Assembly (NCBI GenBank): GCA_009268125.1
Contig: WBOU01000005.1
Location: 310,001-374,000 of the forward strand
Length of the DNA stretch: 64,000 nucleotides
Origin: Chloroflexia bacterium SDU3-3
GTDB lineage: Bacteria > Chloroflexota > Chloroflexia > Chloroflexales > Roseiflexaceae
Direction: 5' to 3'
Under the pieces are notes generated by a model. That model was not told where the DNA came from and did no database searches. It saw only the letters and a list, made by a program, of their open reading frames with translations. The stretch's first letter is position 1, and every line of letters begins with the position of its first letter. This document shows positions 7,029-22,972 of the stretch, in pieces. Both the position numbers and the translations under genes were made by a program.

Positions 7029-7742
7029 CTATGTCGAAACCGAGCGCTCGCGCATGTAGCCGCCCGGCAGCTCAGCCGAGCGCGCCAGCAGCCGACGCAG
7101 GTCGCGGATGATGATCCGGCCTCGGCCAGAGCCAACGATCTGCATATCGCGCCACGAGCGGAACATGCGGCTGACGGTGAACTGAGTGACGCCGACGATA
7201 TCGGCAAGATCCTTCTGCGAGACCGGCACGCTGATCTGCACGCCCTCGTCGGTGACGACGCCGTAGCGCTGGGCGATGCGCGCCAGCACATGGGCCACGC
7301 GCTGCTCAACCCGCTCGGTCACCAGCTCGTGGTACTGCTGCTGCAGATCCTCAAGGTTGCGCGCCATCATGCCCAGCGCATTCTCGCACACCTGCGGGTA
7401 CCGGCCGATCAGTGGCGTCAGATCGGCCTTTTCCCACACCAGCAGGGTGCAGGGCAGCGTGGCCTGGGCGGTAAACGAGTAGCGGCTGCCCGCCACCAGC
7501 GTGCTCAGGCCCACTACCTCGGATGGCCCAGCGATGCGGATGACCATCGGGCGCGCGTCGGGGCCTGCCTTGACCATGCGCACCCAGCCGCTGGCCAGCA
7601 CATACAGCGTCGAGGAAAGCTCACCCTCGCTGAACAGCACGCTCTCGCGGGCGACGCGGATCTGGCGGGCGCTACGAGCAAACATTTGGATGGCCCTATC
7701 ATCAAGGCCGCAGAACAGCGGGACTTTGCCAAGATGCAGCAT
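7029..7742 (-). CDS. Crp/Fnr-family transcriptional regulator
   Basis: 237 residues. The N-terminal cyclic-nucleotide-binding-like beta-roll (about 10-125: FCGLDDRAIQMFARSARQ, LFSEGELSSTLYVLASGWVRM) is joined by a dimer helix to a C-terminal winged helix (about 155-220: VSQKDLADIVGVTQFTVSRMFRSW). The phosphate-binding signature of true CRP is not well conserved, and there is no Fnr cysteine cluster, so the ligand is unknown. It could link to the cyclase-containing protein at 16807-21075 through a cyclic nucleotide, but that is speculation. Confidence 0.9.
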   Translation of the reverse strand: MLHLGKVPLFCGLDDRAIQMFARSARQIRVARESVLFSEGELSSTLYVLASGWVRMVKAGPDARPMVIRIAGPSEVVGLSTLVAGSRYSFTAQATLPCTLLVWEKADLTPLIGRYPQVCENALGMMARNLEDLQQQYHELVTERVEQRVAHVLARIAQRYGVVTDEGVQISVPVSQKDLADIVGVTQFTVSRMFRSWRDMQIVGSGRGRIIIRDLRRLLARSAELPGGYMRERSVST

Positions 7743-14730: not shown

Positions 14731-16113
14731 ATGATTGCTATCTCCCACGACCCCGACTCCGGAACGCTCTACTGGTACTTCACCGACATCATCGCGGGCA
14801 GCACCGATGGCGAGGGCGAGTGCGACGCCACGCTGCTGCTGGATGAGGACGGCCAGATCATCGGCCTAGAGCTTGAGCTGGACGGCAGCGTCAGCAAGAG
14901 CGACCTAACCTTCGCGCTGGGCCACCCCGGCGTGCGCTACGACCCGGCCACCTACACGCTCAGCATCCAGCTGCTGGAGGCCGCCGACATCGACGCCCAG
15001 CCGATCTCCGAGTCGGCCATCCTCGACTTCGATCTCGTGGGCATGATCCAGGGCGCGGAGATCCAGCCCGCCAAGACCTTTGGGCTGGACACCCGGCTGG
15101 AGCGGCTCGCGCCATTCATGGTCAATCTGGATGAGGCCGAGGATGAGGGCGAGGGCGAAGCGCCGATCGCGCCGCCCGCCATCCCCCCAGCCGCCGAGCA
15201 GGCCGCACCCGCCGCTGAGCCAGAGAAGAGCATCCGCTCGGGCTTCGTGGCGCTGGTGGGCAAGCCCAACGTGGGCAAGTCCACGCTGCTCAACGCCATA
15301 CTGGGCGAGAAGGTGGCGATCACCTCGCCCAAGCCGCAGACCACGCGCATCCCCATGCGCGGCATCTACACGCGGCCCGACGCCCAGGTGATCTTTGTGG
15401 ACACCCCCGGCATCCACGACCCACGCACCAAGCTGGGCAGCTTCATGGTCGACCAGGCCCGCCGCGCCATCCCCGACGCCGACATCATCTGCTTTGTGGT
15501 CGACATCTCCGAGCCGCCCAGCAGGCTCGACCGCAAGATCGCCGAGCTGATGCGCCGCACCCGCACGCCCAAGCTGCTGGTGCTCAACAAGGTGGATCTG
15601 CCCACCCCCAAGGGCCAGCAGAACCTTGAGGCCTACCGCGCCCTGGGCACGTGGGACATGGAGCTGGCCGTCTCGGCCACCAAGCAGAAGGGCCTAGACA
15701 CCCTGCTGGATGAGCTGGTCAAGCGCCTGCCCGAGGGCGCGCAGCTCTTCCCCGACGGCCAGCGCACCGACCAGGGCAGTCGCGAGCGCGCATCCGAGCT
15801 GGTGCGCGAGCAGGTGCTGCGGCTCACCGAGCAGGAGGTGCCCCACAGCGTGGCCGTAGAGGTGGAAGAGTGGGAGGAGCGCGGTGCGGCAATTTATATG
15901 CGCATGACCGTTTATGTAGAAAAGGAATCGCAGAAGGCCATCTTGATCGGCGCGAAGGGTGCCATGCTCAAGCAGATCGGCAGCCGCGCCCGCACCGGCA
16001 TCGAGCGCATGCTAGGGCGAGCGGCCTACCTCGACCTGTGGGTAAAGACCCGCACCAACTGGCGCGACGACCCCTCGTCGCTGCGCTGGCTGGGCTACAC
16101 CGACAAATCGTAA
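14731..16113 (+). CDS. era: GTPase Era with extra N-terminal domain
   Basis: 460 residues, about 160 longer than ordinary Era. The C-terminal 295 residues are a complete Era: G1 GKPNVGKST, G3 DTPG, G4 NKVD, and a KH domain with IGAKGAMLKQIGSRARTGIERMLG for binding 16S rRNA during 30S assembly. The first 125 residues (ISHDPDSGTLYWYF, ATLLLDEDGQIIGLELE, VRYDPATYTLSIQL) form two repeats resembling DUF2283-type beta modules, joined by an acidic then Ala/Pro-rich linker. AAGGA precedes the ATG and there is no internal start site at the domain border, so the fusion appears genuine. Confidence 0.93.
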   Translation: MIAISHDPDSGTLYWYFTDIIAGSTDGEGECDATLLLDEDGQIIGLELELDGSVSKSDLTFALGHPGVRYDPATYTLSIQLLEAADIDAQPISESAILDFDLVGMIQGAEIQPAKTFGLDTRLERLAPFMVNLDEAEDEGEGEAPIAPPAIPPAAEQAAPAAEPEKSIRSGFVALVGKPNVGKSTLLNAILGEKVAITSPKPQTTRIPMRGIYTRPDAQVIFVDTPGIHDPRTKLGSFMVDQARRAIPDADIICFVVDISEPPSRLDRKIAELMRRTRTPKLLVLNKVDLPTPKGQQNLEAYRALGTWDMELAVSATKQKGLDTLLDELVKRLPEGAQLFPDGQRTDQGSRERASELVREQVLRLTEQEVPHSVAVEVEEWEERGAAIYMRMTVYVEKESQKAILIGAKGAMLKQIGSRARTGIERMLGRAAYLDLWVKTRTNWRDDPSSLRWLGYTDKS

Positions 16114-16806: not shown

Positions 16807-19800
16807 TTAGCGTGCTCCCTCTATGATCGCTTGCAAACGTAGCCGTTCACCATTGGCTTCCAACAAAATAAACGTGTGCTCAGCATCTTTTAGGAGCAGC
16901 AGCGCAGCCTCGATCTGCCCAGATCGGATCAGCACCACGCCGCGCGCCATATGTGTGCGCGCCAGCTCGAACTGATCCTTGGTCTCGGTGAAGATCTGGG
17001 CGCTCTCGTCGAGCAGGGCCTGGTGCAATGGGTCGTCGGCGGGCAGCGCGAGCGCCAGCAGCCGGCCAGCGATGCCCTGGTCGTGCTTGCTGTGGATGCG
17101 GCGGGCGATCTCCAACGCCTGCCGCGCGTGGGCCTGGGCGTGGTCGCGCTGGCCAAGCGCGCTGTGGGCCTCGGCCAGCCCGCTCAGCGCCTCGGCGCGC
17201 AGCCGGTCGGACTGCGACTCGTTGGCGAGGGCGAGCGCGCGGGCGGCGGCGGCGGCGGCCTCGTGGTGGCGGCCCATGGCGCAGAGCGCGAAGGCGTAGT
17301 TGGCCAGCGAGCTGCCCTCCTGGTAGCCGCTGCCCAGCAGCCGATGGATCTCGACCGCATCCTCATAGGCCCGCACGGCGGTGGCGTAGTCGCCCTGGTG
17401 GTACGAGATCAGCCCCAGCGTGTCGTAGGCCTGCGCGATATTGCGGCGGTCGTTCATCTCGCGCGAGAGATCGAGGGCCTGCTGGCAGCGCAGGCGGGCC
17501 TCGTGGTAGCGGCCCAGGCTGATCAGGGCGTAGGCGCTATTCAGGCTGGCGAAGACGCCCATGTAGCGCAGGTTGATGCGCGCCACGATCTCCTCGGTGA
17601 TGCGGTAGTGGTCTAGCGCCTTCTCGTACTCGCTCTGCAGCTGCCAGAGGTAGCCGAGGTTGTTGTGGGCGGTGGCCAGGCCGGGCAGGTCGTCGATCAT
17701 CTCGCGGATGCGCAGGCTATGCTCGAAGTGCTGGCGCGAGCGCGGGTAGTCGCCGCGCATACCGTAGACTGCGCCCAGGGTGGACTGGAGCCGGGCCTCG
17801 ATCTGCTCATCCTCGTGGGTGCGCGGGTCGCGGGTGATGTGGCGCAGGCCCTCCTCGCAGGCGGCGATGGCCTGGTCGTGCTCGCCGCGGCGCTGGTGGA
17901 TGAGCGCGATGTCGGCGCAAACGATCGGGATAGCCAGCACCGAGAGGCCCTCGGCCCCCGAGCGGGCGATGGCCATGGCCCGCCCCAGGTCGTCGAGCGC
18001 CTGGTTGTACTGGCCCTGTTTCTCAAGCACGCTGCCGCGCTTGCCGTAGGCGCGGCGGGCCACCTCGGCGGTGATGTCGGGCGCGGCCAGCACCTGGCTG
18101 TGCTGGGCCAGTGCGTCGTCGTAGCGCCCGATGGTGGCCAGCACATCGCCCAGCGCGTCGCGGGCGCGCCAGGTGCGTGGGTCGGCGGCATCGTCGAGCG
18201 CCTCAAGCGCCCACTCGTAGTACTGGATGGCCTCATCGCTGGCGTAGATGGCGCTGGCCGCATCACCCGCCATCAACAGGTAGTCGATGGCCTTCTCGCG
18301 CCGGTCGCTCAGGCGGTAGTGGTGGGCGATCAGGCCCAGGTAGTCGTCGAGGTCGCCAGCGTAGCGCCGCTCAAGGTACGCGCCGATCCGCCCGTGCAGA
18401 TCGCGGCGGCGCGAGTAGAGCATGGATTGGTAGGCAACCTCTTGGATCAGGGCGTGGCGAAAGATGTGCACGCGCTCCGGCTCGATCCGCTCCAGCTGGG
18501 TGAACTCGTGCTCATCCAGGCGCACCAGCTGCCGCACCAGCGTGCCCTGCTCCACCGGCTGGAGCGCGCGCAGCACGCCGAAGGGGATGCGCTGGCCGAT
18601 CACCGAGGCGACGCGCAGGATGGTGCGGCTGGTCTCCTCGAGCTGGTCGATGCGGGCCAGCAGCAGCCCGTGGAGGCTGTCGGGCAGATTGTCGAGCGCG
18701 GGCTGCAGGTCGGCGGCATCGAGCTGGTCGGCGGCATAGCCTGCCCGCTCAAGGTCGTGCACCTTGGCGAACACGGCGTGGATCAGCTCGTTCAGGAACA
18801 GCGGGTTGCCCGCCGCCCGCTCGATGATCTGGTCGATAGTCTCGGCGGGCAGGCTGGATGCGCCGCCCAGCAGCGCGATCAGCTGGCTGCTGTGCTCGGC
18901 GGAGAGCTCGCGCAGGCGCAGCAGGGGCGCATCCTCGGGCAGATCTAGCTCGGGGCGGTGGACGCCCACCAGCAGCACGGTGTGGCCCGCCAGCTTGGGG
19001 CCGACCTGCTGCCACAGATCGAGCGAGATCGGGTCGGCCCAGTGCAGATCTTCAAACAGGGCCAGGATAGGGCCGTCGTGCGCGGCGTGCACCAGCAGCT
19101 GCTCAAGCAGCTCGAAGCGGCGCTGCTGGCGCTGCTTGGGATCCAGGCCGCGGGTGAGGCGGTTCTCGGGGATGTCGAGCCGGGCCAGATCGCCCATAAT
19201 CGGCAGCCACTCCTCCATCTCGGGGCCAAGCTTGGCCAGCTCGGCCCCCAGCTTGCGGATGCGCTGGGCGTTGCTGTCGCTGGCCACGATGCCGCAAAGC
19301 GATTTCAGCCACTCGGCCCAGGCGTTGTAGGGGATGCCGCTGGCGTAGGAGTAGCACGAGGCCGAGATGGTGCGGAAGCCGGCCGCCTGGGCATCGGCCA
19401 CCAGCGCGGCGGTGAGGCGCGACTTGCCCACGCCCGCCTCGCCCACGATCCGCACCGCGCTGCCCTGGCCCGCCTTCACCGCGGCGATGTGCTCGCGCAG
19501 CCAGGCCAGCTCCGGCTCGCGCCCGATCAAAGGGCCATCTGCAGGCAGCAGCTCCTCGGCCACCGACTCGCGCAGCGAGACGATGCGCAGCAGCGGCACC
19601 GGGTTGGACTTGCCCTTCAGGCTGACCTCGCCGCGCGGCTCGCAGACCACCCGCGCGTCGACCTCGTCGGCCACCGCCTGGCTGCACCAGACCTCGCCCC
19701 ACGCGGCGTTGCTCATCACGCGGGCGGCCACATTCACCGCGTCGCCCATCATGGTGTACTCTTTTCGGGCGGCGCTGCCTACATTCCCCGCGAACACCGT

Positions 19801-21075
19801 GCCCAGATTCAGCCCGATGCGCTGGGCCAGCACCACCGCGCCCTCGCCCATAGCGGCCTGCAGCGAGGCGAGCACCTGGGGCATGCGCTCCTGCATGGCG
19901 ATGGCGGCCATGGCGGCGCGCTCGGCGTGATCTTCGTAGGCGATCGGCGCGCCGAACATAGCCACCAGCTTCAGGCCCTCGTCGGCCACATCGACCTTGT
20001 TGATCACGCCACCGAACAGCTCCACCGCCTCCTGCATGCTGGTGATGTAGGTCTGGATGGCCTGGGCGGCGTGGGCGGGCGGCAGGTACTCGGCCAGATC
20101 TTCTAGCCCCACCACCTGCGCAAACAGCGCGGTGACGGGGCGCAGCTCGGCCTCGATCTGGGGCAGCTGCGGGTCGAGCTGGATCTTCTCTAGCAGCGAC
20201 GCGGCTAGGTAGGGGCTAGTGCGGTTGAGGTCGTCGATCAGCGGGGGGATGGCCAGCTCGGGCGCGGCCACATCGGGCAGCAGCTCGGGCGGGGGCTGGT
20301 AGGCCAGGGCCGTTCCGCCCAGCGCATCCAGCCGCAGGAAGCCCGGCGCGGCTGCAGCGCCCTGGGCCAGCGCGCCGATCTGGCCCAGCATGCCTGGGCC
20401 AATCACCACCTCGCGCGGGCCAGCCAGGCCCTCGGCGGTGGCCACACGGTTCACGGTGGGGCCGAGCACCGCGCAGTAGCGGGCGTGCTCCAGGCCCACG
20501 CTGGCGAAGGCCACCGGCCCGCTCTCCACCCCGATATGCAGGTGCATCGGGAAGGAGCCGACACCCAGGACCACATGCGTATAGTCGCGCAGGGCCTCCT
20601 GAAGCGCCAGCGACGCGCCCGCCGCCGCACGGGCGTGGTCGGCCTCGCCAAAAAACACCAGCAGGGCATCGCCGCCGAAGGCGATCAGATCGCCGCCGTA
20701 GCGCTCGATCCGCTCGATCATAATGTCGAAAATATGGTTGAGCGCGCCGGTCACGCGCTCGATACCCTCGCGGCCCATGGTCGCCAGGCGCTCGGCCAGG
20801 GCGGTGGAGCCGGAGAGATCGGCAAACAGCAGCGACCCGGTGCGCCAGAGCAGCCAGGGGTTCTCGCGCCGCTCGTGCAGCAGCTCGTGGGTGAGGATAC
20901 GCGGCAGGTAGGTGGTGACGGTGTAGCGCGAGGCCGCAAGGTGCACAAAGGCCTCAAGCGTGTACGCGCCCAGGCCCGAGTCGCGCTGGCCATCAATGGC
21001 CTCGACCAGCTCGGATGGGAGGTAGCGGCGCAGGTGCTTGGGGTCAAGCACGCCAGGATCATTCGGCTCCGCCAT
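16807..21075 (-). CDS. Twin nucleotide-cyclase domain / STAND ATPase / TPR signalling protein
   Basis: 1422 residues, no signal peptide. Domains in order: class III cyclase 1 (about 75-260; FADLSGS with Asp86, GGD with Asp136); class III cyclase 2 (about 312-505; Gln321 in place of the first metal Asp, Lys361, Asn449 and Arg453 in GDAVNVAAR); AAA/STAND ATPase (about 517-850; GREPELAWLREH, P-loop GEAGVGKS 546-553, LFEDLHWAD Walker B); helical linker; then about ten tetratricopeptide repeats (from about 1000 to 1400; for example AHNNLGYLWQLQSEYEKALDHY). This arrangement fits a ligand- or protein-sensing switch whose output may be cAMP or cGMP. It lacks the kinase domain of TOMM-associated kinase/cyclase fusions. 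The NHLP-like peptide follows directly. Confidence 0.9.
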   Translation of the reverse strand: MAEPNDPGVLDPKHLRRYLPSELVEAIDGQRDSGLGAYTLEAFVHLAASRYTVTTYLPRILTHELLHERRENPWLLWRTGSLLFADLSGSTALAERLATMGREGIERVTGALNHIFDIMIERIERYGGDLIAFGGDALLVFFGEADHARAAAGASLALQEALRDYTHVVLGVGSFPMHLHIGVESGPVAFASVGLEHARYCAVLGPTVNRVATAEGLAGPREVVIGPGMLGQIGALAQGAAAAPGFLRLDALGGTALAYQPPPELLPDVAAPELAIPPLIDDLNRTSPYLAASLLEKIQLDPQLPQIEAELRPVTALFAQVVGLEDLAEYLPPAHAAQAIQTYITSMQEAVELFGGVINKVDVADEGLKLVAMFGAPIAYEDHAERAAMAAIAMQERMPQVLASLQAAMGEGAVVLAQRIGLNLGTVFAGNVGSAARKEYTMMGDAVNVAARVMSNAAWGEVWCSQAVADEVDARVVCEPRGEVSLKGKSNPVPLLRIVSLRESVAEELLPADGPLIGREPELAWLREHIAAVKAGQGSAVRIVGEAGVGKSRLTAALVADAQAAGFRTISASCYSYASGIPYNAWAEWLKSLCGIVASDSNAQRIRKLGAELAKLGPEMEEWLPIMGDLARLDIPENRLTRGLDPKQRQQRRFELLEQLLVHAAHDGPILALFEDLHWADPISLDLWQQVGPKLAGHTVLLVGVHRPELDLPEDAPLLRLRELSAEHSSQLIALLGGASSLPAETIDQIIERAAGNPLFLNELIHAVFAKVHDLERAGYAADQLDAADLQPALDNLPDSLHGLLLARIDQLEETSRTILRVASVIGQRIPFGVLRALQPVEQGTLVRQLVRLDEHEFTQLERIEPERVHIFRHALIQEVAYQSMLYSRRRDLHGRIGAYLERRYAGDLDDYLGLIAHHYRLSDRREKAIDYLLMAGDAASAIYASDEAIQYYEWALEALDDAADPRTWRARDALGDVLATIGRYDDALAQHSQVLAAPDITAEVARRAYGKRGSVLEKQGQYNQALDDLGRAMAIARSGAEGLSVLAIPIVCADIALIHQRRGEHDQAIAACEEGLRHITRDPRTHEDEQIEARLQSTLGAVYGMRGDYPRSRQHFEHSLRIREMIDDLPGLATAHNNLGYLWQLQSEYEKALDHYRITEEIVARINLRYMGVFASLNSAYALISLGRYHEARLRCQQALDLSREMNDRRNIAQAYDTLGLISYHQGDYATAVRAYEDAVEIHRLLGSGYQEGSSLANYAFALCAMGRHHEAAAAAARALALANESQSDRLRAEALSGLAEAHSALGQRDHAQAHARQALEIARRIHSKHDQGIAGRLLALALPADDPLHQALLDESAQIFTETKDQFELARTHMARGVVLIRSGQIEAALLLLKDAEHTFILLEANGERLRLQAIIEGAR

Positions 21076-21413: not shown

Positions 21414-22817
21414 CTAGCGGGCGATCCGCGCGCTGCCATCGGGGAAGTCGACGATCAGCGCGCCCTGCTCGTAGTTGGCCTCGGCGATCTCCCATGTGGG
21501 GGCGAAGACGGGCGTGGTGCGCTTGCCGCAGGCCAGGCGGATAGCGGCGCGGGCGTGGTCCTCGGCCACGGGCGGGTTGAGCACGATCATACGCTCGACC
21601 TTGCGCTGGGCGCAGGTGTCGAGCGCAAGGCGGAACAGGCTGCCGCCAGCGCCGGTGGCGGCGGCGAAGCGCTGCTCGCGGGCGTAGCTCTCGGCTGCGC
21701 CGTAGGCTAGGGCCAGGGCGGCCAGGGCGGCCAGCGCGCCCGCTGCCCAGCGCCCGCGCGGCCAGGGCAGCCGCCCCAGGGCCACGCCAGCGGCGCAGGC
21801 CGCCACGATCATGGGCAGGTAGAGGTAGCGCGCGTTGGGCGGCGCGGTGAAGGGCGCGGTGGGGGCCAGGGTGCAGCCCAGCGCGGCCAGGGCCAGCAGC
21901 CCGCCAAGGGCGCGGCGGCGGGCTAGCGCGGCCCCGGCCTGCGCCAGCAGCGCCAGCACCAGCGCGCCGCCCAGCCACACCAGCCAGGCGGCGTCGGCCC
22001 GCTCGCTGCCGGGCAGCGGCGCGGCCAGCAGCGCGATGGCGCGCAGCGGGTTGAGCGCCACATGCAGCCCTAGGCCGTAGTGCCCGCCACCTACCACATA
22101 GTTGCGCTGCTCGATGTGGAGCTGGATGGCCAGGTAGACCACCGTAATCAGCGCGGGCAGGGCGTAGCGCGCCCAGGCGGCGGGGCGGCCAAGCCAGCGG
22201 CGCGTGTCGCCCTGGGCTAGCCAGCCGTCGGCCAGCACCAGCAGCGGCAGGGCCGCGATCGCGCTCTCCTTGGACAGCAGCGCCAGCGCCATGCACAGCG
22301 CGGCCAGCGCGCGCAGCCCCCACTCGCGCCGCGCCCCCGCCGCGCCCCAGGCACCCACCCAGGCGTGCGCCATCAGCAGCAGCCACAGGCAGGCCAGCAG
22401 GTCGCTCTGGGCCGAGATCCAGACCACCGCCTCGAAGGGCGCGGGGTGCACCGCCACCGCGCAGGTGGCCAGCCCGGCGACCCAACCGCGCCCACCGGAC
22501 AGCCGCCACACCAGCAGGCCCGCCAGCGCGGCGTTGGCCGCGTGCAGCGCCATGCTGGCCGCGTGGAAGCCGCCCCAGCCCAGCCCGAAGCTGTGGCCCT
22601 GCACCCAGAAAGCCACCCAGATCAGCGGGCGGTAGAAGTGGCTCTGTTCAATATCAAACGCGCCCCGCAGCATCTTGGGGAAACTGTAGGTGTAGCCGCC
22701 GATCAGCCACTGGAAGTCGTCGGCGGCGAAGGGGCGGGCGGGCAGCGCGCGGTAGGTGAGCAGCGTCAGCGCGGCAGCGGCGAGGGCGAGCAGGGCGGTC
22801 AGGCGTCGTAGGTTCAT
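21414..22817 (-). CDS. Multipass membrane glycosyltransferase-like protein (GT39/ArnT type)
   Basis: About 467 residues with roughly ten membrane helices. After the first helix comes ARPFAADDFQWLIGG, an acidic pair in the first outer loop as in lipid-linked sugar transferases of the GT-C class. HFYRPLIWVAFW, FHAASMALHAANAALAGLL and LALLSKESAIAALPLLVLADG are further typical pieces, and a soluble C-terminal domain of about 90 residues follows. Sugar donor and acceptor are unknown. I start at ATG 22817 before the first helix, because the longer frame runs into an R2 repeat. Confidence 0.7.
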   Translation of the reverse strand: MNLRRLTALLALAAAALTLLTYRALPARPFAADDFQWLIGGYTYSFPKMLRGAFDIEQSHFYRPLIWVAFWVQGHSFGLGWGGFHAASMALHAANAALAGLLVWRLSGGRGWVAGLATCAVAVHPAPFEAVVWISAQSDLLACLWLLLMAHAWVGAWGAAGARREWGLRALAALCMALALLSKESAIAALPLLVLADGWLAQGDTRRWLGRPAAWARYALPALITVVYLAIQLHIEQRNYVVGGGHYGLGLHVALNPLRAIALLAAPLPGSERADAAWLVWLGGALVLALLAQAGAALARRRALGGLLALAALGCTLAPTAPFTAPPNARYLYLPMIVAACAAGVALGRLPWPRGRWAAGALAALAALALAYGAAESYAREQRFAAATGAGGSLFRLALDTCAQRKVERMIVLNPPVAEDHARAAIRLACGKRTTPVFAPTWEIAEANYEQGALIVDFPDGSARIAR

Positions 22818-22937
22818 GCGGTTGGCTCTGGCGCAGGCAGCGGAGCGTGGCTGTCGGCACCAATTGGCGGTTCCTCTCTTCGGCTGGGCCGGGTTGCCCG
22901 CTAGGATACCACGAACTCGCCCATACAGTGGGAGCGG

Positions 22938-22972
22938 GATAACCACGAAGACGCCAAGGCACAGGGGGAAAG
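22938..22972 (+). repeat. R2 short-period repeat
   Basis: ACCACGAAGACGCCAAGGCA unit in the otherwise gene-free 22818-23213 interval. Confidence 0.7.

What the first reader, a model, noticed from the sequence alone, without database searches (positions are those of the whole stretch)
19520..20850. Two cyclase domains with complementary losses, as in animal adenylyl cyclases
Seen: domain 1 keeps both metal Asp residues (86, 136) but has Thr214 where the transition-state Arg is expected. Domain 2 has Gln321 instead of the first metal Asp but keeps Lys361, Asn449 and Arg453. Known: mammalian C1 supplies the metal ligands and C2 the Lys/Asn/Arg. Inference: the two halves may pair within the chain to form one active site and one degenerate regulatory site.
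Basis: partly seen in the sequence, partly recalled or inferred. Interest (0 to 1): 0.6.

Follow-up and report, generated by a model that had tools for sequence, protein, structure and literature searches.

The report
Bacterial soluble-type adenylyl cyclase, paired domains
A Chloroflexota bacterium carries a large enzyme predicted to make the messenger cAMP with two unequal halves that together form one active site, built like the human "soluble" adenylyl cyclase; this kind is already known from bacteria, but this branch lacks the residues with which the human enzyme binds bicarbonate.

Summary
ORF 16807-21075 (-), 1422 aa, holds two class III cyclase domains (C1 ~78-240, C2 ~308-500), then an AAA_16 P-loop ATPase and TPRs. 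C1 keeps both metal Asps (D86, D136). C2 has Gln at the first metal position and keeps Lys, Asn and Arg.

One composite site is well supported. An AlphaFold2 model (pLDDT 92.5, pTM 0.91) matches human soluble adenylyl cyclase (sAC/ADCY10) across both domains (Z 36.5-38.8). D86, D136, N448 and R452 are invariant in 66 relatives; C2 never has the metal Asp. A domain tree puts human sAC C1 with bacterial C1s and C2 with C2s.

The right comparison is sAC, not transmembrane cyclases. Bacterial sAC-like enzymes, including from Chloroflexus, were described in 2004 (cited in PMC3918592, PMC11006738). T213 is not a family trait: most close relatives keep Arg. Human bicarbonate ligands K95/R176 are A132/A212 here, so mammalian-type bicarbonate binding is unlikely. 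Known kind; modest interest.

The parts
16807..21075 (-). sAC-like tandem adenylyl cyclase gene, 1422 aa (C1 - C2 - AAA_16 P-loop ATPase - TPR)
   Evidence: start codon agrees with relatives L009, L010, L012-L014 whose N termini align with M1
20356..20844 (-). cyclase domain C1 (residues ~78-240): metal Asps D86 (20818-20820) and D136 (20668-20670); lost base Lys A132 (20680-20682); A212/T213 (20437-20442) in place of hsR176 / canonical Arg
19576..20154 (-). cyclase domain C2 (residues ~308-500): Q320 (20116-20118) replaces the metal Asp; K360 (19996-19998), T441 (19753-19755), N448 (19732-19734), R452 (19720-19722) kept
19009..19533 (-). AAA_16 P-loop ATPase domain (residues 515-689), Walker A GEAGVGKS at 545, Walker B-like LFEDLHWAD at 673
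16810..18156 (-). TPR region (residues ~974 to the C terminus)
   Evidence: TPR_12, 5 stretches; TPR_2, TPR_10 and others

Best explanation
The gene encodes a soluble, single-chain class III adenylyl cyclase of the sAC (Lys/Thr) type. C1 and C2 fold onto each other as a pseudo-dimer. The one working site takes its two metal-binding Asps (D86, D136) from C1, and base recognition (K360, T441) and transition-state residues (N448, R452) from C2, turning ATP into cAMP. The mirror-image site is dead for catalysis: C1 lacks the Lys (A132) and C2 lacks the metal Asp (Q320). The AAA_16/TPR half probably couples activity to nucleotide state or partner binding, as in STAND-type proteins, and cAMP is probably read by the genome's CRP-type regulators. 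Shown by computation: domain content, residue conservation, predicted fold and pairing. Inferred: activity, ATP over GTP, regulation by the ATPase/TPR half, downstream readers.
For: Best solved-sequence match is ADCY10 over both domains, 4cm2 E 1.2e-25; the transmembrane AC2 C2 domain reaches only ~2e-4. AF2 model pLDDT 92.5, pTM 0.91; human sAC entries fill the top 24 rows, Z 36.5-38.8 against 28.2-33.3 for transmembrane ACs. Catalytic residues conserved on the expected halves. All C1s and all C2s separate (100/97), with human C1 and C2 on the matching sides. C1-C2-ATPase-TPR architecture; full-length human sAC likewise has a P-loop/STAND region (PMC12802110). 13 cNMP_binding matches in the same genome, one in the window.
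Against: No activity data. The PPi-receptor Lys (hsK144; PMC12867704) is H180 here. In the tree the human domains have very long branches, so their exact placement is unsure. The 66-member sample was drawn partly with the peptide pattern EYTVMGDA, which inflates conservation of T441 and D445; the 27-member sample was not, and there T441 is 26/27.
Confidence: 0.87

Rival explanations
1. The pseudo-site is a bicarbonate-sensing site as in mammalian sAC, so this enzyme is an HCO3-/CO2 sensor.
For: Same family; reviews state that bicarbonate activation was shown for bacterial sAC-like enzymes including from Chloroflexus (PMC11006738; PMC3918592).
Against: Human HCO3- ligands K95 and R176 are A132 and A212; position 212 is Ala in 32/32 close sequences and Arg in none of 66; position 132 is T, A, S, N or G in all 32. 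Neutralising these residues greatly reduces the HCO3- response of human sAC, and sea urchin and salmon sACs lacking one of them respond to pH instead (PMC12867704).
Confidence: 0.15
2. The protein makes cGMP or another cyclic nucleotide rather than cAMP.
For: The product cannot be proven from sequence.
Against: K360 and T441 match the ATP-recognising residues of human sAC (K334/T405); each is 26/27 in the unbiased sample. Guanylyl cyclases usually carry Glu and Cys or Gly there (own knowledge).
Confidence: 0.07
3. It is a catalytically dead tandem cyclase acting as a nucleotide-binding scaffold for the AAA/TPR half (compare 6yii, a class III AC-like ATP-binding protein from Pseudomonas).
For: 6yii is among the structural matches (Z 24.7); the PPi-receptor Lys is His.
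Against: All six core catalytic residues are present and strongly conserved.
Confidence: 0.06
4. C1 and C2 pair between two chains (head-to-tail dimer) rather than within one chain.
For: Single-domain bacterial class III cyclases are homodimers (own knowledge).
Against: The single-chain model already forms the sAC-like pair with high confidence.
Confidence: 0.05

Closest known systems
[quoted passage not shown] PDB 4clk, 4cm0, 4oyz)
   Same: C1-C2 order, pseudo-dimer fold (Z 38.8 over 424 residues, 25% identity), C1 Asp/Asp plus C2 Lys/Thr/Asn/Arg, same-length enlarged C2 beta2-beta3 loop (KVFMFDKG / KVDVADEG), C-terminal P-loop half
   Different: Bicarbonate ligands K95/R176 replaced by A132/A212; PPi-receptor K144 is H180; long TPR array recognised by Pfam; about 22-25% identity
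Bacterial sAC-like cyclases with the sAC domain structure (Kobayashi, Buck and Levin 2004, cited in PMC3918592 and PMC11006738; the paper itself is not held)
   Same: Described as bacterial relatives with conserved functional domain structure, including from Chloroflexus; this protein has close relatives in Chloroflexus (L060, L061, L063, L075)
   Different: I could not check which Chloroflexus protein was assayed, or whether it belongs to this branch or to the paralog branch that keeps the C1 Lys
Mammalian transmembrane adenylyl cyclases (AC9, AC5, AC8)
   Same: Same division of labour between C1 (metal) and C2 (Lys/Asn/Arg); structural match Z 28-33
   Different: No membrane domains here; Thr instead of Asp for base recognition; weaker sequence and structure match than sAC
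TIGR03903 TOMM system kinase/cyclase fusion
   Same: Cyclase-AAA-TPR portion aligns (237 bits)
   Different: Far below its cut-off of 705.75; no kinase domain here

Membership tests
Class III nucleotidyl cyclases | Guanylate_cyc (CHD) domain above the Pfam cut-off | tested here: met
   two stretches, 107.3 bits for the protein, cut-off 21.9
sAC-like (ADCY10-type) adenylyl cyclase | Tandem unequal C1-C2 with metal Asps in C1 and Lys/Thr/Asn/Arg in C2 | tested here: met
sAC-like (ADCY10-type) adenylyl cyclase | C1 and C2 fold together as in sAC crystal structures | tested here: met
   (predicted model, not a solved structure)
sAC-like (ADCY10-type) adenylyl cyclase | C1 groups with sAC C1 and C2 with sAC C2 in a domain tree | tested here: met
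   100/97; caveats: long human branches, only four single-domain cyclases and no transmembrane AC in the tree
sAC-like (ADCY10-type) adenylyl cyclase | C-terminal P-loop NTPase region | tested here: met
   AAA_16 (with TPRs after it); Walker A at 545
sAC-like (ADCY10-type) adenylyl cyclase | Adenylyl cyclase activity | not testable with these tools
   needs an enzyme assay
Mammalian-type bicarbonate-binding sAC | K95 and R176 in the pseudo-site | tested here: not met
   A132 and A212
Mammalian-type bicarbonate-binding sAC | Stimulation by HCO3- and Ca2+ | not testable with these tools
   needs an enzyme assay
Transmembrane adenylyl cyclase | Two six-helix membrane domains | tested here: inconclusive
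   Pfam finds only cyclase, AAA_16 and TPR domains, and none is apparent on reading the sequence, but no membrane-helix predictor was run
TOMM kinase/cyclase (TIGR03903) | Score above the curated cut-off | tested here: not met
   237.3 against 705.75 bits

The most novel reading that the evidence does not exclude
In this Chloroflexales clade the pseudo-site has been rebuilt rather than merely lost: Gln at the former metal position is 32/32 and Ala at the R176 position is 32/32, so the site may bind a different regulatory ligand, or the enzyme may sense pH directly, making these sAC relatives with a non-bicarbonate allosteric input.
Probability: 0.25. Interest if true: 0.5.

Novelty: new member of a known kind. 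Interest (0 to 1): 0.3.

Why it matters
Bacterial relatives indicate that the unequal C1/C2 division seen in human sAC is old, and that the catalytic site of the pseudo-dimer stays fixed while the mirror site drifts. A clade with an intact catalytic site but neither bicarbonate ligand gives a natural test of whether mammalian-type bicarbonate sensing is ancestral or derived, a question reopened by the 2026 report that sea urchin and salmon sACs respond to pH instead (PMC12867704).

Tried and rejected
Transmembrane-AC parallel as closest relative: rejected, sAC scores higher in sequence and structure. Mammalian-type bicarbonate site: K95 and R176 equivalents absent. T213 as a family-wide marker: rejected, 22/32 close sequences have Arg. 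TOMM kinase/cyclase: below cut-off. Plasmid collection: relatives all under 60% identity, one record covering 80% of the query, mostly rhizobial. Kobayashi 2004 could not be read. Searches for papers on bacterial tandem cyclase-STAND proteins gave nothing specific. Residue distances in the model were not measured because coordinates were not exported. A link with the Era/CoaX/UbiE genes was considered: they are on the opposite strand and were not found in the flanks of related loci.

Full report
What is there. The finding lies in one minus-strand ORF, 16807-21075, 1422 aa. Pfam finds two Guanylate_cyc stretches, an AAA_16 ATPase at residues 515-689 and many TPRs. Walker A is GEAGVGKS at 545. 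The genome (6.76 Mb, 51 contigs) appears to belong with Roseiflexaceae/Chloroflexales: the nearest relatives of the protein in a named collection are from Roseiflexaceae, Roseiflexus, Oscillochloris and Chloroflexus.

Residue check. The best matches among solved chains are human soluble adenylyl cyclase, both domains (E about 1e-25); the transmembrane AC2 C2 domain reaches only about 2e-4. A MAFFT alignment with the human letters printed gives D86=D47, D136=D99, A132=K95, A212=R176, K360=K334, T441=T405, N448=N412, R452=R416; Q320 faces a human Asn. The roles of the human residues are from PMC12867704 (Table 1) and PMC12250328.

Conservation. Two samples were used. Twenty-seven tandem sequences, the window's included, mostly from a whole-genome search of relatives: D86, D136, N448, R452 27/27; K360 and T441 26/27; position 320 never Asp. 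Sixty-six, the window's included, from the genome-contig scan: D86, D136, T441, N448, R452 66/66; K360 55/66 with 6 Arg; position 320 Gln in 32, otherwise S, G, H, N, R and others, never Asp. The second sample was drawn partly by the motif EYTVMGDA, so its T441 and D445 counts are biased. In the 32 closest sequences Q320 is invariant and position 132 is always T, A, S, N or G, whereas 25 of the 34 more distant ones keep Lys at 132. Position 213 is Arg in 22 of the 32 close ones.

Structure. AlphaFold2 on residues 1-525 with the 66-row alignment gave pLDDT 92.5 and pTM 0.91. Foldseek's 24 best PDB matches are all human sAC (E 2.4e-28 to 1.3e-25), followed by AC9. VIA-align gives Z 36.5-38.8, 415-433 aligned residues and 2.8-4.2 A for sAC, against Z 28.2-33.3 for transmembrane ACs. 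A single alignment spanning model residues 33-505 and sAC residues 1-469 means that the two domains have the sAC placement. With the residue mapping above, the C1 and C2 residues fall in the sAC active site; I did not measure distances.

Ancestry. In a tree of 30 C1 and 30 C2 domains plus four single-domain cyclases, C1s and C2s are each one side of a branch (100/97), with human sAC C1 among the C1s and human C2 among the C2s; the window genome's paralog behaves the same way. The human branches are long and no transmembrane AC was included, so this supports a shared origin of the unequal pair but does not fix the order of branching.

Mechanism. Best reading: one composite ATP site, C1 giving metal ligands and C2 giving base recognition and transition-state contacts; a dead mirror site; the AAA_16/TPR half as regulator. 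The last point is inference from architecture and from the P-loop/STAND region of full-length human sAC (PMC12802110). Possible cAMP readers exist: 13 cNMP_binding stretches in the genome, one in a Crp-type protein at window 7029-7742.

Bicarbonate. Human sAC binds HCO3- through K95 and R176 (PMC12250328, PMC12867704). The window protein has Ala at both places. By analogy with sea urchin and salmon sACs that lack one of them and respond to pH (PMC12867704), I expect no mammalian-type bicarbonate response. Against this, bacterial sAC-like enzymes including from Chloroflexus are reported as bicarbonate-activated (PMC11006738, PMC3918592 citing Kobayashi 2004, which I could not read), and I do not know to which branch that enzyme belongs.

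Verdict. Observation confirmed with corrected numbers; interpretation supported in its main claim; the closest kin is sAC; a known kind with a modest twist in the pseudo-site.

Noticed in passing
G000:C5:303366-307595 (+), outside the window (L038 867-5096): A second sAC-like tandem cyclase (1409 aa, 37-39% identity) ends about 2.4 kb before the window starts, about 19 kb from the window gene. It keeps the C1 Lys (position 132), has Leu at the C1 Arg position and Asn in place of the C2 metal Asp.
   Followed up: partly
21414-22946 (-): A protein of about 510 aa that reads as a polytopic membrane protein, with no Pfam or NCBIfam hit, lies just upstream of the cyclase gene on the same strand. 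A homologue sits directly upstream of the cyclase on the same strand in six related loci (L042, L043, L044, L046, L047, L073), so the pair may be functionally linked.
   Followed up: partly
7029-7742 (-): A Crp/Fnr-type regulator (cNMP_binding plus HTH_Crp_2) about 9 kb from the cyclase gene: a possible cAMP reader.
   Followed up: no
14731-16113 (+): GTPase Era with an N-terminal extension of about 165 residues, part of it weakly like DUF2283.
   Followed up: no
L031:1486-2898: One tandem relative has Gln for the base-recognition Lys and Gly for the base-recognition Thr, which may mean another substrate or a dead enzyme.
   Followed up: no
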